From NCBI GenBank assembly GCA_027487315.1, contig JAIYDW010000095.1:1-34741 (forward strand): DNA of 34,741 nt, read 5' to 3'. The notes below the pieces were generated by a model. It saw only the letters and a list, made by a program, of their open reading frames with translations. It was not told the DNA's origin and searched no databases. Positions 14,422 through 34,214 of this stretch are shown piece by piece (the stretch's first letter is position 1; each line of letters starts with the position of its first letter). The translations under genes were made by a program, and so were the position numbers. This stretch comes from Verrucomicrobiaceae bacterium. Lineage in GTDB: Bacteria > Verrucomicrobiota > Verrucomicrobiia > Verrucomicrobiales > Verrucomicrobiaceae.

Positions 14422-14739
14422 ATGGTCCTCCAACGCCACCGCTGCGGACTCATCTACACCCAGGCCTTCGCCGACTACCTCGACGCCCGCCAACGCCTCG
14501 AAGGGGATGACCATCCCGACGACGTCCTCTCCCTCGACTACATCCGCTGCGCCACCGGCCCCCAGGCCGGCACCTCCTGGTGCCAACTCACCTGGATCCC
14601 CTCCGTCTCCATCCCACTCACCGATCGCTTCCAATTCGGTTCCACCCTGCTTCACATCCACAAGCAAACCCGCAACGGCCTCAAAACCCGCGGCCTCGAC
14701 TACGACCCCGAAAAAGACTCCCTCCGCATCCTCTCCTAG
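14422..14739 (+). CDS. Small hypothetical protein
   Basis: A 105-residue protein that I do not recognise. The frame shows strong GC-rich third-position codon use (GTC CTC CAA CGC CAC CGC), like the core genes nearby, which supports real coding. It is soluble, with two cysteines (C43 and C54) and a C-terminal half LTDRFQFGSTLLHIHKQT followed by a basic stretch and a short acidic tail. It begins 28 bases after the sod terminator and ends 90 bases before the large secreted protein. An AT-rich gap after it probably carries the promoter of that gene. Confidence 0.65.
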   Translation: MVLQRHRCGLIYTQAFADYLDARQRLEGDDHPDDVLSLDYIRCATGPQAGTSWCQLTWIPSVSIPLTDRFQFGSTLLHIHKQTRNGLKTRGLDYDPEKDSLRILS

Positions 14740-14828
14740 CGAACAGTTCATTTTTCTATTCCAGTCCGACTCATTTTTCGATAAAAGGGAATCCCACGGA
14801 TCTCCAACCTCGCCCTGGGACCCTCCAA

Positions 14829-17800
14829 ATGCTCCGCAAGGCTCTCCTTCTACTCTTCGCCTCCGCGATCTCCGCCTTCTCTCAGGGCACCGGCCTCACT
14901 GGGCAATACTACGACACCGCCTCCTTCGGCACCCTGAGAACCAACCGTACGGATGCCTCCATCAGTTTTGACTTCGCCTCAGCCATTCCCTCCGGCACCG
15001 CCATCACCAGTGCAGACACCTTCTCCATCGCCTGGAGCGGACAGGTCGAACCCGAGTTCTCGGGTCTCTACACGTTCTATGTAACAGCCGATGATGGAGC
15101 TCGACTCTGGGTGAATGATCAGATGATCGCCTGCCGGACGTTCGCCGCCGCAGGGCCGGAGATGCGAGGTCAGGTCAATTTGACCGCCGGAAAACGCGTC
15201 AACATCCGCCTGGAATACATCGAACAAACAGGCTCCGCCTCCGTGAAACTCGAATGGTCCAGCGCCTCCCGGGCGCGCGAGGTGATCCCTACCTCTCGCC
15301 TGTTCCCAGCTCGCGTGGACAAAGCAGGTGGTTCCCTGTTACGGGAGCACTGGAGCGGGATCAGCGGAGCCTTGATCTCCTCGCTCACAGCAAACACGAA
15401 TTACCCAAACAAACCCGGTGGCCGCGAGTTCATCACCTCGTTCGAGTGCTTGGCACAGGATTGGGCGGATTCATTTGGGACGCGAGTCACAGGCTTCATT
15501 GTGCCCCCAGTGACGGGCGACTACACCTTCGCCGTGAGTGGCGATGACGTCGTGGAACTGTATCTCAGCACGGATGCAACCAGCACAAACAAATCTCTCG
15601 CTGCAAGCGTGGCCTCCGCCACCGCGTTCCGCGCCTGGGGCACATCCTCAACGGCTCGCAACCTCATCCAGGGCCAGCGTTACTACGTGGAACTGCTCCA
15701 CAAAGAGAGCACCGGCACAGATCACTGGTCCGTCGGCTGGAGGAAACCGGGCGATTCGAATTTCAGCGTCGTTCCCGGCTCCGCGCTGGTCCAGCCGGGC
15801 CTCGGAACAGCGCAACCCACGGAGACAAATCTGCTCAACACCATGGCACAGGATCACCCTCGCCTCTTTGCCACAGCGGAACGCTTCGCGAAGCTGAAAG
15901 CGGCCTACCTGAGCCCGACGCCCTCGCAGGCGAAGACTTGGGCGCAAAATGCGATCAACTCGGCCAATGGCCTTCTCACAACGCCGCCGGTGGTTTATGC
16001 GCCGGATGTGCGCAGCGTCATTTTGGGCGACTCGCGTAAAGTGGTGGACCGCATGTACAAACTCGGCCTCGCCTGGCAACTCACCGGCGATCCGCAATAC
16101 GCTGAACGTGCCTGGACGGAACTAAGCACTGTTGCGGACAACACGCTCTTCCCCAACTGGAACCCCAGCCACTTCCTCGACACCGCCGAAATGACCCACG
16201 GCTGCGCCATCGGTTACGATTGGTTTTACCACTACTGGGATGCCACACGCCGCACCACCATTCGAAACGCCATCCTCAACAAAGGACTCACACCCGGACT
16301 CTCGCAGTTTACCAACAATGTCGGTTGGTCCCGCAGCGATGGCAACAACTGGAACCAAGTCTGCACCGGCGGCCTAAGTATGGGCGCCCTCGTGGTGGGC
16401 ACCGAATCCGAGACGCTGGTGGAAAACATCCTCAACCGCTCCATCAACTCCACCCGCCCCTGCTGGAGACGTTTCACAACGGACAACGGCGCTTGGTACG
16501 AAGGCCCGGGCTACTGGGGCTACACCACCGAGTATGGCATGCGCATGCTTGCTGGTCTGGAGTGGGTGCTTGGCAGTGACTTCGGCATCAGCAACACCCA
16601 GCACGTCTCCGAGGCTGGCTATGGTCCCATCAACTCGCTTGGCACCTCCAACATCATTTTCAACTACGCTGATGCAGGCGCCGGCGGAGGCACTCGCGGG
16701 CCGCAGTTTCAGTGGATGGCTCGTCGCTACGGCATCGCCGCCTATGATGGCTGGGAGAACTCGGGCAGCGGCAGTGCTCTAAGCGCCTTGTGGTGGAATG
16801 ATCATGCAGGCATCACCGTCGCCAACAATGACTCAGCCGCAGACATGGCCTTTCATGGCGATGCCGGAACCGCTTTCCAACCGCAGGAAATGGTCACCAT
16901 GCGTGGCAAATGGGCCGACAGCCGTGCCACCTTCGTCGGCACCAAAGGCGGTCAAATGGGTGCCGACCATGGCAATCTCGACGCAGGCACTTTTGTGCTC
17001 GACGCGCTAGGTAGGCGATGGTTTCACGATCTTGGCGGCGACAACTACGCACTGACCAACTACTTCAACGACACACCCAATGCCTCCGGTGTCGATCGCT
17101 GGGACTACTACCGCATGCGGCCCGAAGGTCAAAACACCCTCGCCATCAATCCCGATGGCACCGCCGGCATGGTGCTGAATGCCGTCGCACCCCTCACAGC
17201 ATATCAAAGCGAGCTAGGCGGCAGCGGATCCTTCTCAATTCATGATCTCACTCCGGTTTACACGGGCATGAGCAAAGTCTGGCGCGGCGTGCGGCTCATG
17301 GGCGCTCGTGATGAAGTGCTCGTTCAAGACGAAATCCAGGCGGCTACCGGCAAGACGGTGTGGTGGTTCGCGCATTACACGCATCCAACCACCAGCGTCG
17401 TCGTTGCTCCCGATGGCACCAGCGCCACGCTCACCCAGGGCGCAGAGCGTCTATGGTGCAAGATTCTCAGCAGCGGCGGCCAGTTTCAAATCATGGATGC
17501 CGTGCCGTTACCCGGTTCGGCGAATCCGGTGACGACACCCGCGCAAAACGCCAACACCGGCCACAAGAAGCTCGCCATCAATCTCACGAACGTCACAAAC
17601 ACCACGCTCGCCGTGTGGTTCGTGCCCCTGCAAACCGGCGAACCCATCCCCACAACGCTACCCACCGTCACCGCACTCAACACCTGGAACATCTCCGCTT
17701 CAAACGACGCCCCTGTGGCCATCAGGAGCGTCGCCACCAGCAACGGCGAAAATTCGGTAGACATCGATCTGCGCAACTACATCACCGACGACTCCACCCC

Positions 17801-20800
17801 CTCCTCACAGATGCGCTTCAGCTTGAGCGATCCGGTGAACGGCACCATCATCCTGCTCGCCGATGGCTTCACCGCCCGCTTCACACCCAATCCCGGCTAC
17901 ACCGGCGTGCCCAGCTTCTCCTTCACCGCCACCGATACAGGTGCGGATCCTCGCATGATCCTGGCCTATGATTTTGATCCGCCAGATCCAACGGTTTCGA
18001 CCGAACAACCCGATGTCTCAGGCAATGGTCGCAACGGCACACTTGACGCCATCGGCACCGGCACCTTCACACTGCAGAGCGATGTGCCTTCCGCGCTGGG
18101 ACGCGATGGGCGTAGCCTCGATCTGGCGGAGAACGGGGGCGCCAATGCCGCACGTCTCAGCCGCGTCATCACCACCACCGAAATCGATTGGGACACGAGT
18201 GACTGGACTTTCACGGGTTGGTTCAAACGCCGGGACAGTGGCAATGAGGACATGATCTGGCATTTGAACAATGGCGACGGCTTCGGCACCGGCGAAGAGC
18301 TTTACCTGATGGCCCGGGGCACCTCCACTCTCACACTGCATCACTATCCCGGGCCAGATGTGAACATCGAAAGCACCGCAGCGACTCCAGGTGTGTGGCA
18401 TCACTTCGCCGTGGTGCGCAGCGGCAGCACGATGAGCCTGTATCTGAATGGAGCACTCGTCGGCAGTGATAATACCTTCACGCTCGCCACAGCTCAGGTG
18501 CCTCCTCTGATCTTCGGGGGTCACACCGATGTGTCGGCGACTTTTGCACCCCGCTGGTTCGACGGAAAACTTGACGAACTCGCCGTCTTCAACACCGCTC
18601 TCGCTCCGGCTGAAATCACCACTTTGTTCAATGGCATGACCGCACGGCACTTCGGCGGTCTCGGCACCACGGCCACGATTTCACTCTCCGCTGCTCCCGT
18701 GAACTACGTGTGGACCAGCACCCCGAGCGGCAACTGGTCCATCGGCACGAACTGGCAGGCCGGCAGTTCACCAATAAGCTCTCGCGGAGCCTCCGTGCAG
18801 TTCTTCACCGGCCAAACGCTGGCTGCCGGCACCACGACTGCCACCAATGACATCGCCGGAATGCTCCAGATGAACAATCTCACGCTCGCAGGCTCCAGCA
18901 CCGCAGCGACCACGACCAACATCGGCGGCGGCACCTTCCAACTACTCAACAACGGCACCACACTACCCACAGTGAACCTCACCGGCACAGGCACGACACT
19001 GCTCTACAACATCAACACGCCGGTCTTGCTCGGTGCCGACACCTCCTTCAATGCGACCAATAGCGGCACCTTCATCTTCAATGGCGACCTCTCCGGCTCC
19101 GGCGGTCTCATTCGCAATGGCACCTCAAGCAAACTCATCCTCGCTGGCACCAACAGCTACACTGGCGACACCACAATCAATGCGGGCACCCTTCAAATCG
19201 GCAACGATTTAGCCACCGGCACCTTGGGCAGCGGCGACGTCATCAATAACGGCTCGCTGCGCTTCGACCGCACCGGCACGCTTTCGGTTCCCAATGCCAT
19301 CACCGGCACCGGCAGCGTGCAGATCGACTGCCCGATCAATGCCGGCACCGTCGTTTTCAGCGGCACCAACACCTTCGACGGCGGCGTGAATGTCAGTGGC
19401 GGCACTTTGCGAATCACCAACAGCACCGCTCTCGGCGATGGTACGAAAACCGTTACGCTCACCAACGGCACCGTAGGCGCTCCCCACCTCAACCTCGATG
19501 GCAGCAGCGATCCCATCGAACTGCCCGCCACCATAAGCTACAACACAAGTAGCGCCAGCGGCGCCATCATTAACGAAGCGGGTGATAACACGATCCTCGG
19601 TCCGATCAATCTCACCGGCGGCGGAGGCGACACGAAGATTCTAGTCAACGCTGGCACACTCAACCTGGCAGGGAGCCTCGCCCCAATTGCCGCCGGCAGG
19701 AATCTTCTCCTCGACGGCGTTGCCAGTGGTCAAGTCACGGGGCAAATCAATAATGGCAGCGGTGCCATCGGGCTTTCTGGCGTGAATAAACAAGGCACAG
19801 GAACCTGGACAGTGGCAGGCAACAACACGCATGGCGGTTCCACCACCGTCACCGCAGGCACGCTCGTGCTCGGTCACCCAAACGCTCTCGGTAGCAGCGG
19901 TTTGCAACTCGGTAGCACCACCGGTGCCACCAGCATTACCGCGGGAGCCACCTTGGACCTCAACGGACAGCAAGGCATCAATGAGGCCATCACCGTTCGC
20001 GGCACCGGCGTTGGCAGCAACGGTGCATTGGTCAACAATAGCCCAAATCCCGCCAGAATCGACAACGGTGTCCAAAGCATCTCCACCACCTCAGGCGGAG
20101 TCCACAGCACCGTGCCAGAGGTCATCATCAGCGGTAACGCCACCGCCGTGGCCAGTTTGGGTCTGAGCGTTGCCAGCTTCACGATCAGTGGTGGGACCAC
20201 GATCTATTCCACCGCACCCACCGTGACCATCACCGGTGGCGGTGGCAGTGGCGCCACAGCAACCGCCGTTTTGACCAGTGGGATCGTCACCTCCATCACC
20301 CTCACCAACGCAGGCGCCGGATACACATCGTCACCGACCATCGCCTTCTCAGGTGGCACCGTCACCACCGCAGGCACCAATCCCACCGGCACCGGCAACG
20401 CCACCAACTTCGTTGTCGTTGGCATCCAAGTCACGAATCCCGGCAGCGGCTACACCAGCGCCCCGGGCGTCACATTCAGTAGCGGCACCGGAACCACGGC
20501 AACGGCAAACATGTCGGCGGCAATCCTCGCTACAAACAGCAGCATCGGCGGCTCAGGTGATCTCGATTTGTATCCAGCAGTCAGCGGTGCCGTCACCCTC
20601 ACCAAAGTCGGCAATGGCACACTCACGCTCCATGGCGCGAACACGCACGGCGCCACCACCATCAACGCTGGCCGTCTCGCACTCGCAGGCAGTCTCACAA
20701 GCAACCTCACCACCAACGCCGCGATCTTCGCCCCTCAAGGCACCCCCAGCACGACCGCCAATTTGACCCAGACCTCAGCCGCCACCTTTCAAATCCGTCT

Positions 20801-21449
20801 CAACGGCAGCACAGTGGGCAGTGGCTATGATCAGCTCACTGCAGGCGGAAACGTCACCCTCGCTGGCACCCTCGACCTCGTCTGTGGCCCGAACCTCACT
20901 CCCGGCACCGTTTTCACCATCTTAAACAAAACCAGCACCGGAGCCATCTCCGGCACTTTCCTTGGCAGACCCCAAGGCAGCGTCTGGCAGGAAGACGGAT
21001 ACACCTGGATTCTCAGCTATACCGGCGGCACCGGCAACGATGTCACCGTCACTCTCGCTACACCCGTGGAAGCCTGGCGATTCCAGGTCTTCGGCACCAT
21101 CACCAATACCGGACTCAATGCCGACACCTCAGATAAAGATGCCGATGGAACCAGCAACCTGCTCGAATACGCGATGGCCACGGACCCCAACATCGCCGAC
21201 TCCATCCCCTTCAATGTCGAAGAAAGCGACGGCTCTCTCTCCCTCATCTACACCAAGAACAGTTCCGCCACCGACATCACCTTCACCGTCGAATGGAGCG
21301 AAAACCTCATCACTTGGAGCACCTCAGCCGTCACCCAAGCCCTCGTCCCAGACTCCGACAACGGCATCACCCAGCAAATCAAAGCCTCCGTACCCTATGG
21401 CACCCAACTCTCACGACGCTTTTTGCGACTGAAAGTCACACGGCCGTAA
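14829..21449 (+). CDS. Very large secreted PA14 / heparinase-like / LamG / autotransporter-strand-repeat protein
   Basis: The protein has 2,206 residues. The frame is open from 14580, but the start is placed at the ATG at 14829 because it gives a clean signal peptide (MLRKALLLLFASAISAFSQ). Two PA14-like carbohydrate-binding domains follow (about 19-156 and 168-324). A heparinase II/III-like polysaccharide lyase region spans about 341-954 (NNWNQVCTGG, GAWYEGPGYWGYTTEY, DHGNLDAGTFVLDALGRRW). A cadherin/Ig-like segment (about 960-1035) and a LamG-like domain (about 1041-1271) come next. Autotransporter-associated strand repeats (GTGTWTVAGNNTHGGSTTVTAG and similar) extend to about 2075, interrupted by two GYTSxPxV units. 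The tail holds an NADTSDKDADGTSNLLEYA motif. There is no autotransporter barrel or PEP-CTERM. It probably degrades an extracellular acidic polysaccharide. Confidence 0.88.
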   Translation: MLRKALLLLFASAISAFSQGTGLTGQYYDTASFGTLRTNRTDASISFDFASAIPSGTAITSADTFSIAWSGQVEPEFSGLYTFYVTADDGARLWVNDQMIACRTFAAAGPEMRGQVNLTAGKRVNIRLEYIEQTGSASVKLEWSSASRAREVIPTSRLFPARVDKAGGSLLREHWSGISGALISSLTANTNYPNKPGGREFITSFECLAQDWADSFGTRVTGFIVPPVTGDYTFAVSGDDVVELYLSTDATSTNKSLAASVASATAFRAWGTSSTARNLIQGQRYYVELLHKESTGTDHWSVGWRKPGDSNFSVVPGSALVQPGLGTAQPTETNLLNTMAQDHPRLFATAERFAKLKAAYLSPTPSQAKTWAQNAINSANGLLTTPPVVYAPDVRSVILGDSRKVVDRMYKLGLAWQLTGDPQYAERAWTELSTVADNTLFPNWNPSHFLDTAEMTHGCAIGYDWFYHYWDATRRTTIRNAILNKGLTPGLSQFTNNVGWSRSDGNNWNQVCTGGLSMGALVVGTESETLVENILNRSINSTRPCWRRFTTDNGAWYEGPGYWGYTTEYGMRMLAGLEWVLGSDFGISNTQHVSEAGYGPINSLGTSNIIFNYADAGAGGGTRGPQFQWMARRYGIAAYDGWENSGSGSALSALWWNDHAGITVANNDSAADMAFHGDAGTAFQPQEMVTMRGKWADSRATFVGTKGGQMGADHGNLDAGTFVLDALGRRWFHDLGGDNYALTNYFNDTPNASGVDRWDYYRMRPEGQNTLAINPDGTAGMVLNAVAPLTAYQSELGGSGSFSIHDLTPVYTGMSKVWRGVRLMGARDEVLVQDEIQAATGKTVWWFAHYTHPTTSVVVAPDGTSATLTQGAERLWCKILSSGGQFQIMDAVPLPGSANPVTTPAQNANTGHKKLAINLTNVTNTTLAVWFVPLQTGEPIPTTLPTVTALNTWNISASNDAPVAIRSVATSNGENSVDIDLRNYITDDSTPSSQMRFSLSDPVNGTIILLADGFTARFTPNPGYTGVPSFSFTATDTGADPRMILAYDFDPPDPTVSTEQPDVSGNGRNGTLDAIGTGTFTLQSDVPSALGRDGRSLDLAENGGANAARLSRVITTTEIDWDTSDWTFTGWFKRRDSGNEDMIWHLNNGDGFGTGEELYLMARGTSTLTLHHYPGPDVNIESTAATPGVWHHFAVVRSGSTMSLYLNGALVGSDNTFTLATAQVPPLIFGGHTDVSATFAPRWFDGKLDELAVFNTALAPAEITTLFNGMTARHFGGLGTTATISLSAAPVNYVWTSTPSGNWSIGTNWQAGSSPISSRGASVQFFTGQTLAAGTTTATNDIAGMLQMNNLTLAGSSTAATTTNIGGGTFQLLNNGTTLPTVNLTGTGTTLLYNINTPVLLGADTSFNATNSGTFIFNGDLSGSGGLIRNGTSSKLILAGTNSYTGDTTINAGTLQIGNDLATGTLGSGDVINNGSLRFDRTGTLSVPNAITGTGSVQIDCPINAGTVVFSGTNTFDGGVNVSGGTLRITNSTALGDGTKTVTLTNGTVGAPHLNLDGSSDPIELPATISYNTSSASGAIINEAGDNTILGPINLTGGGGDTKILVNAGTLNLAGSLAPIAAGRNLLLDGVASGQVTGQINNGSGAIGLSGVNKQGTGTWTVAGNNTHGGSTTVTAGTLVLGHPNALGSSGLQLGSTTGATSITAGATLDLNGQQGINEAITVRGTGVGSNGALVNNSPNPARIDNGVQSISTTSGGVHSTVPEVIISGNATAVASLGLSVASFTISGGTTIYSTAPTVTITGGGGSGATATAVLTSGIVTSITLTNAGAGYTSSPTIAFSGGTVTTAGTNPTGTGNATNFVVVGIQVTNPGSGYTSAPGVTFSSGTGTTATANMSAAILATNSSIGGSGDLDLYPAVSGAVTLTKVGNGTLTLHGANTHGATTINAGRLALAGSLTSNLTTNAAIFAPQGTPSTTANLTQTSAATFQIRLNGSTVGSGYDQLTAGGNVTLAGTLDLVCGPNLTPGTVFTILNKTSTGAISGTFLGRPQGSVWQEDGYTWILSYTGGTGNDVTVTLATPVEAWRFQVFGTITNTGLNADTSDKDADGTSNLLEYAMATDPNIADSIPFNVEESDGSLSLIYTKNSSATDITFTVEWSENLITWSTSAVTQALVPDSDNGITQQIKASVPYGTQLSRRFLRLKVTRP

Positions 21450-25373: not shown

Positions 25374-26693
25374 TCAGCGATCCACCAAAGCAAACATCAA
25401 GTCCGCTTCTGACACCACCTGCCCGTTAACCACACAGCGCCCTATCGCCTTCCCGATGCTCCGCTTCATCGCTGTGATCTCCGTCTCAATGACAACCGTG
25501 TCGCCCGGCAGTACCGGCTTGCGCCACTTCACATTGTCCGCGCTCATGAAGTAACCAATCTTGCCCTGATTCTCTGAACGCCTCAGCATCAGCACACTCG
25601 CCACCTGCGCCATCGCCTCCAACTGCAGGACCCCGGGCATGATCGGATGCCCTGGAAAATGCCCCTGAAAATACGGCTCATTGATCGTCACATTTTTCAC
25701 GCCCGTGCACTTGTTCTCACCCTCAAAACCCACAATGCGATCCACCATCAAAAACGGATACCGATGCGGCAAAATCTTCATCACCTCATTGATACCCAAC
25801 ACCGCCTCACCCATCGGGATCGTCACCGCCGTTGGAACCATCGCCCGCATCTGATTGTATTGCTCCACAATCGCCCGCGCCAACTGCGTGTTCGGCCCGT
25901 GCCCCGGACGCACCGCAATCACGTGACCCGTGATCCGCTTGCCCGACAGCATCAAATCCCCGACGATATCCAGGATCTTGTGCCTCACGAATTCATCATC
26001 AAAACGCAGCGGTTGCTTCGACAGAAGCGTCTCCCCCCGAATCACCACCGCCGCCTCAAGCGTCCCACCCTTGATCAACCCCTTCTCCAGCAAGTGCGCG
26101 ATGTCCTCGTAATAGACAAACGTCCGCGCCGGTGCGATCTCCTTCTCAAAAATCTCCGGCGTGATCTCCAAACTCTGATACTGCGTGAACCGCCCATTCG
26201 GACCCACATTCGTACACGAAATCCGAAACTTCTTGTCGGGCACAATCGTCAAAATACTGCCATCCCGCGTCTCCTGATAGATCGGCTCCCGAATCTCAAA
26301 CACCTTGCGAAATTCCGTCTGTTCCGCGATCCCCGCCTTCTTGATCAACTCCACAAAAGGCATCGCACTCCCATCGGCAATCGGCGGCTCATTCGCATCC
26401 ATCTCCACGATCGCATTGTCCACACCCATCCCCGACAGCGCCGCCAGCACGTGTTCCACCGTGTGCACATTCACCCCGCCTTCAGCAATCGTAGTCGCAC
26501 GCTCCACCTTCTGCACCTTTTCAACCAAAGCAGGAATGAACGGCTTGTCCTCCAGATCCATCCGCCGAAACTTGATCCCAAAATTGTCTGGCGCCGGTTG
26601 CAGGGTCAACGTGACTTGTTCCCCCGTGTGCAAAGAGGTTCCAGTCAATGAAGCAGGTTTGGCCAGCGTGTGTTGGCGGTCGGAGGCAGGCAT
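25374..26693 (-). CDS. lpxC/fabZ: Bifunctional LpxC-FabZ fusion
   Basis: A 439-residue fusion. Residues 1 to about 290 are the zinc deacetylase LpxC, the committed step of lipid A synthesis, with catalytic E80, zinc ligands H81 (HTVEHVLAAL), H238 and D242 (RHKILDIVGD) and H265 (GHGPN). Residues about 300-439 are the 3-hydroxyacyl-ACP dehydratase FabZ, with HRYPFLMVDR, H345 (GHFPGHPIMPGV) and E359 (EAMAQ). LpxC and FabZ compete for the same 3-hydroxyacyl pool, so joining them may fix their ratio. Such fusions are known in Bacteroidetes, Chlorobi and related phyla. The start is placed at the ATG at 26693; an in-frame extension to 26741 looks non-coding. Confidence 0.94.
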   Translation of the reverse strand: MPASDRQHTLAKPASLTGTSLHTGEQVTLTLQPAPDNFGIKFRRMDLEDKPFIPALVEKVQKVERATTIAEGGVNVHTVEHVLAALSGMGVDNAIVEMDANEPPIADGSAMPFVELIKKAGIAEQTEFRKVFEIREPIYQETRDGSILTIVPDKKFRISCTNVGPNGRFTQYQSLEITPEIFEKEIAPARTFVYYEDIAHLLEKGLIKGGTLEAAVVIRGETLLSKQPLRFDDEFVRHKILDIVGDLMLSGKRITGHVIAVRPGHGPNTQLARAIVEQYNQMRAMVPTAVTIPMGEAVLGINEVMKILPHRYPFLMVDRIVGFEGENKCTGVKNVTINEPYFQGHFPGHPIMPGVLQLEAMAQVASVLMLRRSENQGKIGYFMSADNVKWRKPVLPGDTVVIETEITAMKRSIGKAIGRCVVNGQVVSEADLMFALVDR

Positions 26694-28133: not shown

Positions 28134-29147
28134 TCACGCCACAAGCAAAAAATCTCTCCCCTCCACCCATCCCCGCTCCACCAACCATCCCGTCAACGCC
28201 TCCCTCACCCCCCGCGTTCCCACTCCAGCCAGCAAAAAACTCCCTTCCCGCTCCGGCAGCGCCTCCAACCCCACCACCGGCAATCCATCCAACTCCCTTC
28301 CCACCTTCGCCGGATCCACATCCACATAACCCGCCAATCGCACCCCATACTTCCCCAACGCCGCAAAACGCCGCCGCGTCACCCTCCCCGCCCCACACAG
28401 CCAAATCGCTCGCTCATGAGCCACCTCGCTCTGCAACCATCGCGCCAGATACCCCGCCTTCATCTCAAAAAACGCCTCCATCGAATACCTCGCATCCGTC
28501 CGCGAAAGCCTCCCCGGCGGATCATTCCATGTCAACAAAACCTCCGGCACCTTCGCAAACCGCACCCCCGCTTCCATCCACCTCAACCAAAGCTCATAGT
28601 CCTCCGGAAACATCCCCTCCCGATACCCACCCAATCGCTCCAACAACTCCCGTCGAAACATCACACTCGGATGCGCCACCGGTGCCTCAACAAACCGCCT
28701 CAACGCCATCGTCTCCGATTCCACCAACCCATTGATCCAGTCCACATGCGCCGCATACCCCGCTCCCTCTCCGCCATACCCCACCAAACAACTCACCAGC
28801 CCCACCTCACGCCGCGCCTCCAACAACCCCATCTGCTTTTCCAATCGATCCACCGCCATCACATCATCCGCATCCATCCGCGCCACATACCTCCCCCGCG
28901 CCAGCACACACCCCGTTCGCAACGCCGACACAATCCCCGACGCTCCCGTTCTCACCACCCGCACCCTCGACTCCCTGTTCGCCAAATCCACCAACCACTC
29001 CCCCGTCCCATCAATCGATCCATCATCCACCACCACCAACTCCCAATCCCCCATCGACTGCCCCAGCAAACTCCCCACCGCCGCCGGAACACTCGCCAAA
29101 GCATCCCGCACCGGCATCACCACCGACACTGCAACCACGCCACTCAC
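28134..29147 (-). CDS. Family 2 glycosyltransferase with C-terminal Rossmann-like domain
   Basis: The protein has 337 residues. Residues 1 to about 225 are a GT-A family 2 glycosyltransferase: VSVVMPVRDA, VVVDDGSIDGT and the metal/nucleotide-sugar DxD motif MDADD at 91-95, with the acceptor-side EDYELWLR. From about residue 247 a nucleotide-binding-like segment begins (AIWLCGAGRVTRRR, then GYVDVDPAKVG), resembling the Rossmann half of PglD-like or related proteins; this domain is unusual at the end of a GT2. The start overlaps the sulfatase stop (ATGA), so the two are cotranslated. Substrate unknown; polysaccharide synthesis is likely. Confidence 0.85.
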   Translation of the reverse strand: MSGVVAVSVVMPVRDALASVPAAVGSLLGQSMGDWELVVVDDGSIDGTGEWLVDLANRESRVRVVRTGASGIVSALRTGCVLARGRYVARMDADDVMAVDRLEKQMGLLEARREVGLVSCLVGYGGEGAGYAAHVDWINGLVESETMALRRFVEAPVAHPSVMFRRELLERLGGYREGMFPEDYELWLRWMEAGVRFAKVPEVLLTWNDPPGRLSRTDARYSMEAFFEMKAGYLARWLQSEVAHERAIWLCGAGRVTRRRFAALGKYGVRLAGYVDVDPAKVGRELDGLPVVGLEALPEREGSFLLAGVGTRGVREALTGWLVERGWVEGRDFLLVA

Positions 29148-30580
29148 TTCCGCTCAAACCCCGCCCGAATCACCCCATCCGTCCCGATCAACGGCACCGG
29201 ATCCTTCACCCGCCCCAGCGGCCGACACCCCGGACCAAACACCCCTTCACCCAACTCCCCATTCATCACCGCCGCCATCGCTCGCAACTCCGCCACCACT
29301 CCTTCATTCGCTCCCGCCAAATCCATCGTCTCCCCGATGTCCTCATCCAACTGATACAGCTCCCCGCTCTTCAAATGCAGCTTCCACGGGCCCTTCCTCA
29401 CCGCATCCAGCATCGCCCCGCGGAAATAATGAAACACTTCCCTTGGCCTCGCCTCCCCAATCAAAGCCGGCCACACATCCACCCCATCCAGCACCCGATC
29501 TCCCGGCACCTTCGCCCCCGCCCGACCCGCCAGCGTCGGCAGCACATCCATCATCCCCGTGATCGCCCCCGTCTCCGTACCCGCCGGAATTTGCCCCGGC
29601 CACCAGGCAATCGTGCACACCCGAATACCCCCTTCGAATGTCTCCCCTTTGCGACCCCGCAAAGGCGCATTGTTCGACCCATGCGTCACCGCCCCCCCAT
29701 TGTCACTGGTGAACAGCACCAGCGTCTTTTTATCCAGCCCCAACTCCCTCAGCGTCTTCAAAACCTCGCCCACACTCCAGTCCACCTCCTGCGTCCAATC
29801 CCCAATCAAACCATTCTTCGAAGTCCCCCGCCACTTCATCCCCGGATACAGCGGAAAATGCACCGCCGTATGCGGCAAGTACAAAAAGAACGGCTCATCC
29901 TGGTGCTTTTTGATCAGTTCCACCGCCTTCTCCGTGTAACGCTGCGTGATGCTCGTCTGCCCGTCCTGCTTCACCCTCTCAATCACCGTCCCATTCTCCA
30001 GCAGCGGCAATGGCGGCTGCGCATTCCCCTTGATCCCCGTCTCATCGATCGGCTGATTCTGCCGCGCCGCCACATTCGGATTCACCTTCTTCACCTGCCC
30101 CGGATTGCTCTTCGCCCCGTCCTCCAACGTCCCCATATCGTTCGAATACGGCAGCCCAAAGTAGTAATCAAACCCCTGGTCAGTCGGCAGCATCCCCGGC
30201 TGATCCCCCAAGTGCCACTTGCCCACGCACGCCGTCGCATAGCCCGCCGCCTTCAGCACCTCCGCCACCGTCACCTCCTCCGGATTCAACCCCACCTCAG
30301 CTCCCGGAAACAAAACATGCGGCGTCGGCAGCACCCGCTTCGGATAACACCCCGTCATCAAGGAAGCCCGCGACGGCGAGCACACCGGTGCCGCATAAAA
30401 ACTCGTCAACTTCCGCCCCTCCGCCGCCATCCGGTCCAGGTTCGGCGTCGCATTCGTCTTCGACCCAAAAGGCCCAATGTCCGCATACCCCAGATCATCA
30501 ATATTGATCACAATAAAGTTCGGCTTCTCCACCGCCATCACCGACCCCACCCAAACCATCAAAAACAAAAAACAATGCAT
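29144..30580 (-). CDS. Exported type I sulfatase (arylsulfatase family)
   Basis: A 478-residue exported enzyme. A signal peptide (FLFLMVWVGSVMA) precedes the metal-binding INIDDLGY (D28, D29). The formylglycine signature C67-S-P-S-R is complete, so activation by an FGE-type enzyme is expected. Further motifs are GKWHLGD, the second metal-binding SDNGG and the distal PWKL region. It removes sulfate esters, probably from a polysaccharide or glycan in the periplasm or outside. It is cotranslated with a glycosyltransferase, and the large heparinase-like protein elsewhere in the window could act on a similar sulfated or uronic polymer. Confidence 0.93.
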   Translation of the reverse strand: MHCFLFLMVWVGSVMAVEKPNFIVINIDDLGYADIGPFGSKTNATPNLDRMAAEGRKLTSFYAAPVCSPSRASLMTGCYPKRVLPTPHVLFPGAEVGLNPEEVTVAEVLKAAGYATACVGKWHLGDQPGMLPTDQGFDYYFGLPYSNDMGTLEDGAKSNPGQVKKVNPNVAARQNQPIDETGIKGNAQPPLPLLENGTVIERVKQDGQTSITQRYTEKAVELIKKHQDEPFFLYLPHTAVHFPLYPGMKWRGTSKNGLIGDWTQEVDWSVGEVLKTLRELGLDKKTLVLFTSDNGGAVTHGSNNAPLRGRKGETFEGGIRVCTIAWWPGQIPAGTETGAITGMMDVLPTLAGRAGAKVPGDRVLDGVDVWPALIGEARPREVFHYFRGAMLDAVRKGPWKLHLKSGELYQLDEDIGETMDLAGANEGVVAELRAMAAVMNGELGEGVFGPGCRPLGRVKDPVPLIGTDGVIRAGFERK

Positions 30581-30661: not shown

Positions 30662-30759
30662 TAGGCGCATTTGCAAAAATGCGATGAAGCACCTTCACCA
30701 CGCTCACCACCCACAAAGCAACCACCAACCCCAAGGTGGGGCAAGCTTCTAGCTTGCCC
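30662..30759. repeat. Palindromic intergenic element, copy 2
   Basis: This copy is composite. A first hairpin, CGCATTT-GCAA-AAATGCG (30666-30683), is followed by CACGCTCACCA and then CCCCAAGGTGGGG with a perfect 9-bp stem GGGCAAGCT-TCT-AGCTTGCCC (30739-30759). The same order of blocks occurs at 32886-32965 in the same orientation. It occupies the gap between the sulfatase and the two-module protein, so it lies downstream of the latter. Confidence 0.85.
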
Positions 30760-30835: not shown

Positions 30836-32782
30836 TCACTCCCCTCCAACCGTCACCACCGACGCCCGCACAAACACCGCCTGCATCACTGCTGGATCCA
30901 GGTTCCCATCCGCGCCCACCGACTGCCAAGTCCCAATCATCCGCCACATCCCGTCGTGGGTCGTGAATGCAGTCGTCAATTCCAGCGGATGAAAATCCAC
31001 CCCAGGAGCATCCACCGTCATCCCGCCCTCCTTAGCCACCGGAGCCTCAAACCGCTCGCGCGGCGCCTCGCTGTGCCGCCTTACCGACGTATTGACATCA
31101 ATCGTTACCCTATCCGCCCCAAGCACTGGATCAATTTCCCATTGCAGTCCAAGCGGCTCCCTTTCGATCGTCCCCACCAATTCCGCCACTGGCATCCCTG
31201 TCACCAAAACCGTGCCCTTTTCCCCTTTAGCCTCGGGCGCCTGCGCCGTCAAATTTGCTTTCGCCCACGCATAAGAGCGCCCCGACTCGACTATGCTACG
31301 TTGCCCGCTCTTCGTCTCGATCGCTGCCACCGCCACCAATCGACCACGCCCCGCCGCGATCTCTGCCTGCATCGCCTCCCACGCCCCGAGATGATCCGTC
31401 ATAGCCAGACTCTCCCGCCCCAGCTTCCTCACTACCGCGCCATTTGCCTCCAGCACATGAAGGTGAAATTGAATAACCGCAGGACTGCCCCCCGAGAGGG
31501 AGTCGATGAACTCTTCCACCTTGATCATATTGGCTGGCAAGTTTACCACTGTCATAGAAGAAGTTACCTTATCGAAGGTGGCCGAAGAGCCTTCTGGAAA
31601 AGGAATGCCTTCTGCCTTGAGAATATCCTGAACCGTCATACGGACCATGAATGTAGGTTCAGGGGCGGTTGCGGAAAAAGGGTCAGCAGGCGCTGCCGCA
31701 TTCCCTCCGGAGCCCCTTGTCCAAAAATCGGGTGGCACACGAAACTTCTTCATCACCATCCCAGACATCAACCCCACTTCTGGAGCATCCACCTTTGGCC
31801 CCCTCAATGCTTTCGACACCGCTTCTCCATGCGCGTTGAGCCAGCCTTCCGCTTTTGTACTCTTGTTAACCATCACAACCGGAGCTGCCGCACTTACAAA
31901 GCACAACCGAGACCTACCCTCTTCCTCGGCTGGTGCCACACCCAGCAGACGACTCTGACCCGAAAGAAGCGTGGCCGCAGTCATCCAGTTCGTGTTTGCA
32001 AAATCCTGTATCCCGACTTCAACGCGCTTCCCAGCCAAAGTTCCAACCGGGACCATGCGCAACTTCCCCGATTCCGCTGAATGTCGAATCGCGATATTCA
32101 AGTCCAGCGTCTGCCCATCATTCCCCACCACCGGGTCCAACTCCAAACTTAGCCCCACAGGTTCCACTTCTCGACTCTCCTCCTCTGAAGAACCGTCCAC
32201 ACGAACCGCGAACTCGCTCAGATAACTTACTTCTCTTCCCATCTTGGTCATAAGCCGCTGTCCACTCTTCGTTTCAACATTTACGCTACCCACCACCTGC
32301 GCCCCTGCCTTTTCGAAGCGTTCCAGGACTGCAAGATGATTGTCTTTTGCGGCAATCTCCTCAAGCAGCGCTCCAAGCTCTCCAGTTGACACGTCGATCA
32401 AAGTCACCTGAACCGAAAACACTCTCGGCGCGACAGACATTATCTCCTCAACCACGGCTTCAACCAATCCATGTCCTTCTTCTGTGGTTCGGGCTGCCAG
32501 AGTGTGACGCGCGCGATCCAGCACCACAAGGCTCCCCTGCGGCAGTTCCTTCAAATACTCACGAAACACCAGACTGCTCTGTTGAATGAAAGACCTCACT
32601 GACTCTGCATTTTCCCCAGGCTCATTCGGTAACTTCAGTCTGCCTTTTCCTTCAACCACAAAGCCTTCCCTCAACCAATCCCCAGGACACATGTAGCTTT
32701 TCACCGTCCACTCTTCCGCCTCCAAAGGAACTCTCATCAAACAAGCTGTAATCAAAAAGAAGATGAAACAAATCCGCCTCAT
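30836..32782 (-). CDS. Exported protein of two tandem secretin-like modules, unknown function
   Basis: A 648-residue protein from the ATG at 32782; a TTG at 32794 is also in frame. It starts with a signal containing LITAC (C14), so it may be a lipoprotein. It consists of two copies of one module (about 25-305 and 343-648). Each has an opening VKSYMCPGDWL / MKKFRVPPDFW, an N-domain-like piece (TTEEGHGLVEAVVEEI / LPANMIKVEEFIDSL), the motif ETKSGQR (170-176 and 489-495) and a sheet LELDPVVGND / WEIDPVLGAD. The order resembles secretin N and beta domains, but no gate or pore motif is obvious. Function unknown; it is flanked on both sides by the same repeat element. Confidence 0.75.
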   Translation of the reverse strand: MRRICFIFFLITACLMRVPLEAEEWTVKSYMCPGDWLREGFVVEGKGRLKLPNEPGENAESVRSFIQQSSLVFREYLKELPQGSLVVLDRARHTLAARTTEEGHGLVEAVVEEIMSVAPRVFSVQVTLIDVSTGELGALLEEIAAKDNHLAVLERFEKAGAQVVGSVNVETKSGQRLMTKMGREVSYLSEFAVRVDGSSEEESREVEPVGLSLELDPVVGNDGQTLDLNIAIRHSAESGKLRMVPVGTLAGKRVEVGIQDFANTNWMTAATLLSGQSRLLGVAPAEEEGRSRLCFVSAAAPVVMVNKSTKAEGWLNAHGEAVSKALRGPKVDAPEVGLMSGMVMKKFRVPPDFWTRGSGGNAAAPADPFSATAPEPTFMVRMTVQDILKAEGIPFPEGSSATFDKVTSSMTVVNLPANMIKVEEFIDSLSGGSPAVIQFHLHVLEANGAVVRKLGRESLAMTDHLGAWEAMQAEIAAGRGRLVAVAAIETKSGQRSIVESGRSYAWAKANLTAQAPEAKGEKGTVLVTGMPVAELVGTIEREPLGLQWEIDPVLGADRVTIDVNTSVRRHSEAPRERFEAPVAKEGGMTVDAPGVDFHPLELTTAFTTHDGMWRMIGTWQSVGADGNLDPAVMQAVFVRASVVTVGGE

Positions 32783-32885: not shown

Positions 32886-32965
32886 TAGGCACCTTTGCAA
32901 AAACGCGTTCTCACATCATCGACACGCTCACCAGCCCCAAGGTGGGGCAAGCTTCCAGCTTGCCC
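32886..32965. repeat. Palindromic intergenic element, copy 3
   Basis: It carries the same blocks as copy 2: TAGGC-A-n-TTTGCAAAAA-n-GCG, then CACGCTCACCA, then CCCCAAGGTGGGG with GGGCAAGCT-TCC-AGCTTGCCC (32945-32965). The first hairpin is partly lost here (ACCTTT against AAACGCG). It has the same orientation as copy 2 and lies on the other side of the two-module gene. Confidence 0.85.
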
Positions 32966-33027
32966 GAACAGCAACGACAACGAACAAGCCCCCAAGCAAA
33001 CCAAACCCACCACCAACCTCCAACTCC

Positions 33028-33097: not shown

Positions 33098-34057
33098 TCA
33101 TTCCACCCCCGCCAGCTTCATCACCCGCCGCCGCATCCAGTCCGCCTCCGCCTTGAACGATTCCTTCTCATAAAACTTCAGCAACCCCATATCCCGGGAC
33201 AGCACACCAAAGCCCGCCGCCAACTGCAGCTTTCTCAGACATACCGGACACAAATGCATCGGCCGTGAGTCCGTCTCACCCAGATGATTGGAGCCATTCA
33301 TCAAGCACTCATAAAACACACAGTGACGCATCCCAAACATATGACCCATCTCATGCGTCAGCACCTTCCCACTCCGCCGCAGCATCAACTCCCCATCCCC
33401 TTCCGCCGCCGCCTCCCCATAAAAGGCCGGATCATAACGCGCAAAACTAAACACCCCCACACCGCCCTGCAGCATCGCCTGTCCAAATACAAAATTCCAC
33501 GCTTCATCCGGATACAGATCCTCCATCGTCACCGCGATCAGCGCATAACAATCCGCCGGCTTCATCCCTGGCAACCATTTCAAAATGTCCGTTGTCAGCA
33601 GTTGCCGATTTTGAGTGTTCCGATTGACCCGACTCTTCGCCGGCACCTTATCCAACACCACCCCCGGCAGCACCCGTGTCTCCATCGCAAAAAAAGCCGC
33701 ACAGTAGCTCCGCAGTGTCTCCAGATCAGGCGCTTTGTCTCCAAAAGTACCCAAAGGCAAGATCGCCAAGGATTTCTGTGCCGGCCTTGGCTTCACCTGA
33801 GCAAGCACCTTCCGATACTCCTCCACCGTCTGTCCGGGCTCAGCATGCGCCGCCAGCCAGTCACCCGGCTCAGGTTTCCGAATCCTCTCAAACAACGTCG
33901 GATCCGCCTCAAACGCCGCCCGCTGCACCTCCGACAAACCCACCAGCGATCCCATCGCCTCAGCCGCCGTTGGCATCGGCCCATTGCGCAACCCCTGCGC
34001 CTTCCCCACCGAAGCTACCCCGAATCCAATCAGAACCCAAAGAAACACCGCACGCAT
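33098..34057 (-). CDS. Exported archaemetzincin-like zinc metalloprotease
   Basis: The protein has 319 residues from the ATG at 34057, which gives a clean signal peptide (MRAVFLWVLIGFGVASVGKA). An ATG at 34120 is in frame but spoils it. It has the archaemetzincin zinc motif H235-E-M-G-H239 ... H245, followed at once by C246, then C251, M253 and a C270-x-x-C273 pair, the cysteine set of peptidase family M54. The catalytic domain is about 95-290; the first 90 residues are a pro- or N-domain of unknown role. Family members are aminopeptidase-like; most known prokaryotic ones are archaeal and cytoplasmic, so an exported form is unusual. It stands alone on the minus strand. Confidence 0.87.
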   Translation of the reverse strand: MRAVFLWVLIGFGVASVGKAQGLRNGPMPTAAEAMGSLVGLSEVQRAAFEADPTLFERIRKPEPGDWLAAHAEPGQTVEEYRKVLAQVKPRPAQKSLAILPLGTFGDKAPDLETLRSYCAAFFAMETRVLPGVVLDKVPAKSRVNRNTQNRQLLTTDILKWLPGMKPADCYALIAVTMEDLYPDEAWNFVFGQAMLQGGVGVFSFARYDPAFYGEAAAEGDGELMLRRSGKVLTHEMGHMFGMRHCVFYECLMNGSNHLGETDSRPMHLCPVCLRKLQLAAGFGVLSRDMGLLKFYEKESFKAEADWMRRRVMKLAGVE

Positions 34058-34214
34058 GCCGACATCATCCCTCAAACCCCACCCCGAAAGCAATCCTAAA
34101 CCCATCGACTTCCCAAGCAAATTTTAACAACCCTCCGCCACCGCACACTCCAACTTGCATTCCCATCCCGCCCCGCTCCAATGCACCCTCACCCCAACCC
34201 CTTCGTCCCGCACC

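What the first reader, a model, noticed from the sequence alone, without database searches (positions are those of the whole stretch)
30836..32782. Protein built from two secretin-like modules with no visible pore
The two halves share the order VP/CP opening, N-domain-like helix-strand piece, ETKSGQR, ELDPVVG-type sheet and final strands. This resembles secretin N plus beta domains, duplicated in one chain, with a possible lipoprotein signal. It could be a periplasmic or outer-membrane assembly protein of a new type, or a decayed secretin. No secretion gene is nearby.
Basis: partly seen in the sequence, partly recalled or inferred. Interest (0 to 1): 0.6.

Follow-up and report, generated by a model that had tools for sequence, protein, structure and literature searches.

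The report
Pore-less doubled secretin-module protein
The gene encodes an exported bacterial protein made of two tandem copies of a module from the outer-membrane pilus channel (secretin), with the channel's membrane-inserting parts cut out; it belongs to an unnamed, often multi-copy Verrucomicrobia family that reuses a channel part as something other than a channel.

Summary
Observation confirmed. Minus-strand ORF 32782-30836 (648 aa) is two tandem secretin modules: profile-profile E 1.5e-59 over 289 columns; each half matches solved secretins as a fold. The parent is the phylum's type IV pilus secretin (Amuc_1098 family). Compared with it, each module lacks the first membrane hairpin (segment 64-73 aa in 75 modules, against 127-157 in four secretins measured) and the amphipathic-helix-lip motif (present in 10/10 secretins, absent here). 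So 'no visible pore' holds in sequence. It is not a decayed secretin: about 14 genomes carry full-length two-module relatives, and one orthologue pair shows dN/dS 0.15-0.17. The lipoprotein signal is not conserved. Relatives have one, two or three modules, up to about 20 modules per genome; 35 of 68 family genomes have them. The gene is accessory: a same-genus genome lacks it between the same neighbours and has one copy of a palindromic repeat, of which this window has two flanking the gene. Function is inferred: a Sec-exported, soluble secretin mimic (scaffold, adaptor or ligand binder), not a channel. Three-module relatives lie beside Amuc_1100-1102 pilus genes; the window's gene does not. 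New variant of a known kind.

The parts
30836..32782 (-). Focal gene, 648 aa, exported two-module pore-less secretin-like protein
   Evidence: ORF and translation; full-length relatives about 30-37% identical
32717..32782 (-). Signal peptide, residues 1-22; possible lipobox LITAC with Cys15 at 32738-32740, not conserved in relatives
   Evidence: sequence; PROSITE-style scan
31793..32716 (-). Module 1 (residues 23-330): N-domain plus beta-domain
   Evidence: hhalign with module 2; own structure model pLDDT 80.5 and secretin matches, Z 13.8
30839..31759 (-). Module 2 (residues 342-648): N-domain plus beta-domain
   Evidence: Amuc_1098 profile; hhalign with Amuc_1098-type secretins E 2.9e-43; model matches pIV, GspD, PilQ at Z about 10
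32228..32419 (-). Junction segment of module 1, where the parent secretin has its first membrane hairpin; here two short helices
   Evidence: junction profile A6; DSSP of model
31274..31477 (-). Junction segment of module 2 (same deletion)
   Evidence: junction profile A6 E 9.2e-24; hhalign gap
32255..32275 (-). ETKSGQR motif, module 1
   Evidence: sequence
31298..31318 (-). ETKSGQR motif, module 2
   Evidence: sequence
30727..30759 (+). 33-bp palindromic repeat, copy 1, beyond the gene's stop codon
32935..32966 (+). Palindromic repeat, copy 2 (direct orientation), upstream of the gene; the gene-less site in G003 has one copy

Best explanation
The gene encodes a Sec-exported, non-channel derivative of the Verrucomicrobia type IV pilus secretin (Amuc_1098 family). 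Each module keeps the secretin's last periplasmic N-domain and the core of its beta-domain, but the first membrane hairpin and the amphipathic helix lip have been excised, and the module was then duplicated in one chain. Shown by computation: homology, fold of each half, duplication, the two deletions, the many intact relatives, and the accessory, repeat-flanked site. Inferred: it is soluble in the periplasm (or tethered by a lipid in this copy) and works as a secretin mimic, its modules packing through secretin-type surfaces against one another or against secretin-like partners, as a scaffold or modulator at the envelope, not as a conduit. The identity part I hold at about 0.85; the packing/scaffold function at about 0.35.
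For: Duplication: hhalign E 1.5e-59. Parent: NF042912 119 bits; hhalign with Amuc_1098-type secretins E 2.9e-43 (module 2) and 4.4e-22 (module 1) with gaps at the membrane hairpin and an end before the lip. Fold: the Foldseek matches with E <= 0.001 are secretins for the whole chain and for module 1 alone; VIA Z 13.8 against secretins versus 6.2 for the best non-secretin. Deletions: junction 64-73 aa in 75 modules versus 127, 131, 155 and 157 aa in the four secretins where it could be measured; lip motif 10/10 secretins, 0 of the family members scanned. The lip is described as a key determinant of membrane insertion (PMC7545093). Selection: dN/dS 0.15-0.17 at dS 0.26-0.28 in one orthologue pair. 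Ancient architecture: module positions form separate clades across genomes (2mod_1 100/96; 3mod_a 99/88). Context: three-module genes lie near Amuc_1100/1101/1102 homologues in about seven loci by clustering, the families named by profile in one of them.
Against: No pilus or secretion gene lies beside the focal gene, and none was recognised beside the other two-module genes looked at. The gene is absent from a close relative's same site and has a patchy spread, which argues against a core pilus part. Oligomerisation and partners could not be tested; no multimer model. The model has low confidence at 356-381, 517-530 and 583-590. Some other strands could in principle still enter a membrane.
Confidence: 0.5

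Rival explanations
1. A stand-alone exported binding protein: the pore-less beta-domain has become a monomeric beta-sheet domain that binds a ligand (polysaccharide, protein or surface), and the tandem modules give avidity and diversity, with no tie to pili.
For: Fast divergence (34% identity to the same-genus copy in G002), lineage expansion up to about 20 modules per genome and tandem arrays, accessory repeat-flanked site, no pilus gene recognised beside two-module genes.
Against: No ligand-binding motif or known binding family found. Three-module relatives lie near Amuc_1100-1102 genes.
Confidence: 0.3
2. A true, divergent secretin that still forms an outer-membrane channel, with two beta-domains per chain making a pseudo-even ring.
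For: Secretin fold and both gate-hairpin regions retained; exported.
Against: First membrane hairpin and lip motif missing in both modules and in the relatives; no N0/N1 or TPR region; the genome has intact secretins elsewhere.
Confidence: 0.07
3. A decayed secretin gene or duplication remnant without function.
For: Patchy presence; missing parts; lower third-position GC (0.59) than most genes of the window.
Against: Intact 648-codon frame with no stop; full-length relatives in many genomes; dN/dS 0.15-0.17 in an orthologue pair; conserved length of the remodelled junction; module orthology kept over genera.
Confidence: 0.04

Closest known systems
Amuc_1098 / PilQ family type IV pilus secretin of Verrucomicrobia (NCBIfam NF042912; Akkermansia PilQ, PMC4960237)
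   Same: Last N-domain (FRVPPDF..DPFA..GI.FPEGSSA..NT..N) and beta-domain core (T.SGQR, E.DPV.G.DG.TIDLN) are homologous; hhalign E 2.9e-43
   Different: Modules lack the first membrane hairpin and the lip (VPxLGDIPxxGRLF), lack the N-terminal TPR and earlier N-domains, and are repeated 2-3 times per chain
Secretin domain PF00263 plus Secretin_N PF03958 (GspD, PilQ, InvG, pIV, BfpB, RcpA)
   Same: Fold of each module; Pfam hits in 5 and 7 of 15 relatives at E up to 1; solved secretins dominate the fold searches
   Different: Pfam match stops at position 120 of 169, before the lip; the membrane-inserting elements are missing
Single-module pore-less relatives (about 240-300 aa beta-only proteins, e.g. 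own genome C109; N+beta proteins in L097, L124, L132)
   Same: Same hairpin deletion and no lip motif seen
   Different: One module instead of two; some lack the N-domain; found in other families of the phylum too

Membership tests
Secretin outer-membrane channel (PF00263) | Secretin beta-domain homology and fold | tested here: met
   hhalign E 2.9e-43 to secretins; Foldseek and VIA; Pfam E 1.6e-5, below its cut-off
Secretin outer-membrane channel (PF00263) | Preceding N3-type / Secretin_N domain | tested here: met
   Secretin_N found in 7 of 15 relatives; Amuc_1098 profile best stretch 344-461
Secretin outer-membrane channel (PF00263) | First membrane-spanning beta-hairpin | tested here: not met
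   Junction 64-73 aa in 75 modules versus 127-157 aa in four secretins; helices in its place in the model
Secretin outer-membrane channel (PF00263) | Amphipathic helix lip motif VPxLGDIPxxGxLF | tested here: not met
   Absent in every family member scanned, present in 10/10 secretins
Secretin outer-membrane channel (PF00263) | Homo-oligomeric ring of 12-15 subunits | not testable with these tools
   No multimer prediction available
Secretin outer-membrane channel (PF00263) | Encoded with type II/III secretion or type IV pilus genes | tested here: not met
   No such gene seen in the window ORFs; pilus cluster on contig C18. Three-module relatives do lie near Amuc_1100-1102 genes
Amuc_1098 type IV pilus secretin equivalog (NF042912) | Score over the curated cut-off of 750 bits | tested here: not met
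   119 bits for the focal protein; 1039 and 890 bits for own-genome C18 and C128
Lipoprotein | Lipobox cysteine, conserved in the family | tested here: not met
   Lipobox in this copy only, in none of 14 relatives
Anti-phage defence or phage protein families | Match to PADLOC or PHROGs models | tested here: not met
   No match at E 0.01

The most novel reading that the evidence does not exclude
Verrucomicrobia have repeatedly converted their type IV pilus secretin into soluble, pore-less 'secretin mimics' of one, two or three modules by the same two excisions, and use the expanded, fast-turning-over sets to control, cap or diversify secretin-type envelope assemblies: a class of secretin-derived proteins that are not channels.
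Probability: 0.25. Interest if true: 0.78.

Novelty: new variant of a known kind. Interest (0 to 1): 0.55.

Why it matters
Secretins are known as ring channels. A widespread exported family built from 1-3 secretin modules with exactly the membrane-inserting parts removed would show that the secretin module can serve without a pore, and would give soluble material for studying secretin subunit packing. [quoted passage not shown] Three literature searches in the held library found no description of such a family, which is weak evidence of novelty.

Tried and rejected
Decayed secretin: rejected. Conserved lipoprotein: rejected. Single origin of all pore-less modules: the tree puts them in three places, but the AU test does not reject one clade (p 0.075), so it stays open. 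Link with PSCyt2/PSD1 (DUF1549/DUF1553) genes, which adjoin several members: the own genome has 45 PSCyt2 genes, so chance neighbours are expected and I did not build on it. Defence or phage origin: no PADLOC or PHROGs match. A peptide-pattern scan of named genomes with the single focal protein found nothing; a profile-derived one found 18 loci. The PDB sequence search found only BfpB, E 1.1e-5. Proteins of genome-search loci were not handed to structure prediction because its stated rule does not list them; only window and the search for related loci sequences were used.

Full report
WHAT IS THERE. The finding's coordinates fit an ORF on the minus strand, ATG at 32782 and stop at 30836, 648 residues. 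The window is a whole contig, G000:C7, of a 5.87-Mb genome in 256 contigs. The nearest named relatives found by a scan of named genomes are Verrucomicrobium, Prosthecobacter, Brevifollis and Phragmitibacter, so the source is read as Verrucomicrobiaceae-like.

THE DUPLICATION IS REAL. Residues 23-335 against 336-648: BLASTP of the single sequences E 1e-17; profile against profile, prob 100, E 1.5e-59, 289 columns. A profile of the module finds two copies in two-module relatives and three copies in a second group of about 880-1060 aa. In a tree of 72 modules, module 1 of all two-module proteins is one clade (100/96), the a, b and c positions of three-module proteins each form one group (99/88, 86/65, 94/86) and the secretin modules form one clade (100/100). 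The internal repeats are thus older than the genera, not recent copies.

WHAT THE MODULE IS. NCBIfam's Amuc_1098 family (type IV pilus outer-membrane protein) matches at E 1.6e-34, 119 bits, far under its 750-bit cut-off. Pfam Secretin matches module 1 at E 1.6e-5, below its cut-off and only up to profile position 120 of 169. Secretin_N appears in 7 of 15 relatives at E up to 1. The model of the full chain (10 sequences, pLDDT 75.3, pTM 0.66) and a separate model of module 1 (7 sequences, pLDDT 80.5, pTM 0.62) were searched against the PDB. In both, the Foldseek matches with E up to 0.001 are secretins. VIA-align gives module 1 Z 13.8 to GspD 5wq9 (rmsd 10.8 over 185 residues, which I put down to the relative placing of the two domains) and to pIV; the beta-domain part alone fits RcpA 8odn at 3.8 A over 129 residues, Z 12.8; the best non-secretin is Z 6.2. 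In the full chain, module 2 fits pIV, GspD and PilQ at Z 9.4-10.4.

WHAT IS MISSING. Aligned with Amuc_1098-type secretins of this and related genomes (E 2.9e-43), the modules skip the stretch 'GFDWLLG ... FTDPQFQVVI', which by comparison with solved secretins holds the first membrane hairpin, and end before 'VEDKVPxLGDIPxxGRLF', the amphipathic helix lip. The assignment of these elements rests on general knowledge of secretins and on PMC7545093, which states that four strands per subunit make the outer barrel, two further hairpins make the gate, and the lip is thought to be a key determinant of membrane insertion. From the first strand of the beta-domain to the strand after SGQR the distance is 64-73 residues in 75 modules (median 69), and 155, 157, 131 and 127 residues in the four secretins where my pattern could measure it. 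A lip pattern occurs in 10 of 10 secretins and in none of the family members scanned.

HOW WIDESPREAD. A profile of the junction (A6, 29 sequences) finds such modules with E below 1e-9 in 35 of 68 genomes of the family and 13 of 387 drawn over the phylum; none of the listed genomes of the small-genome genus g12 matched (the counts at 1e-9 are mine from the tables, since weaker hits are mostly fragments of ordinary secretins). G027 has 20 matches. Single beta-only proteins occur in the own genome (C109, 245 aa) and in family f2; N+beta forms occur in other families. A tree of 51 beta-domains puts the pore-less forms in three places among the secretins, suggesting more than one loss of the pore, but the AU test does not reject a single clade (p 0.075).

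NOT A RELIC. The frame is intact, a same-length class of relatives exists (L016-L029), and the one close orthologue pair available, 92% identical, has dN/dS 0.149 (NG86) or 0.170 (YN00) at dS 0.26-0.28. This pair is not the window's own gene, for which no close orthologue was found. The window's gene has a third-position GC of 0.59, lower than most neighbours.

SURROUNDINGS. Neighbours are a sulfatase-like gene (29144-30580, named from its sequence) and an M54-type metallopeptidase (33098-34105, Pfam E 8.8e-18), neither linked to secretion. In the same-genus genome G003 these two genes are adjacent (98% and 88% protein identity) with about 100 bp between the aligned blocks and one copy of a 33-bp palindromic repeat; in the window two copies in direct orientation (30727-30759, 32935-32966) flank the gene. 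Direct repeats around the gene and one repeat at the site without it fit gain, or loss by recombination; the direction is not known. The repeat core has five copies in this genome. By contrast the three-module genes of genus g8 sit in a shared neighbourhood; the same clusters of neighbours recur in six to nine loci, and in L083 these include Amuc_1100, Amuc_1101 and Amuc_1102 family genes by NCBIfam, on the other strand and separated by three genes. In the own genome the Amuc_1098 and Amuc_1100 genes share contig C18.

HOW IT PROBABLY WORKS. A signal peptide and the lack of membrane-inserting parts point to a soluble periplasmic protein, in this copy perhaps lipid-anchored. What the modules retain are parts of a secretin that pack subunit against subunit (general knowledge of secretins). 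I therefore take a secretin mimic acting as scaffold or modulator as most likely (about 0.35 for that function), with a stand-alone binding protein a close rival (about 0.3) given its accessory, fast-evolving, expanded character. Neither was tested experimentally.

VERDICT. It is a new variant of a known kind: secretin by descent and fold, not a secretin by its defining membrane parts.

Noticed in passing
window 30727-30759 and 32935-32966: 33-bp palindromic repeat in direct orientation on both sides of the gene, next to further similar stretches (49 and 55 nt, 88% and 75% identical); the same-genus site without the gene has one copy; five copies of the core in the genome.
   Followed up: yes
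L059-L062, L079-L084 (genus g8): Three-module relatives, singly or in tandem arrays, next to a squalene-hopene-cyclase-like gene and beside divergent Amuc_1100/1101/1102 pilus genes.
   Followed up: partly
L067 9366-12029 and L133 8710-11241: Beta-only pore-less proteins (245 and 240 aa) lie a few bases downstream of a PSCyt2/PSD1 (DUF1549/DUF1553) gene in two genera, likely one operon.
   Followed up: partly
L125 7161-12805, L126 9546-12206: About 890-aa two-module pore-less proteins with an extra secretin-like N-terminal region per module, two in tandem in L125, in family f89; possibly an independent duplication.
   Followed up: partly
window 14580-21449: Very long frame (2289 aa from its first start codon) with glycine/threonine-rich autotransporter-like repeats after a PA14-like and a heparinase-like part (read from sequence only).
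   Followed up: no
window 25374-26693: Apparent LpxC-FabZ fusion next to an LpxA-like gene (read from sequence only).
   Followed up: no
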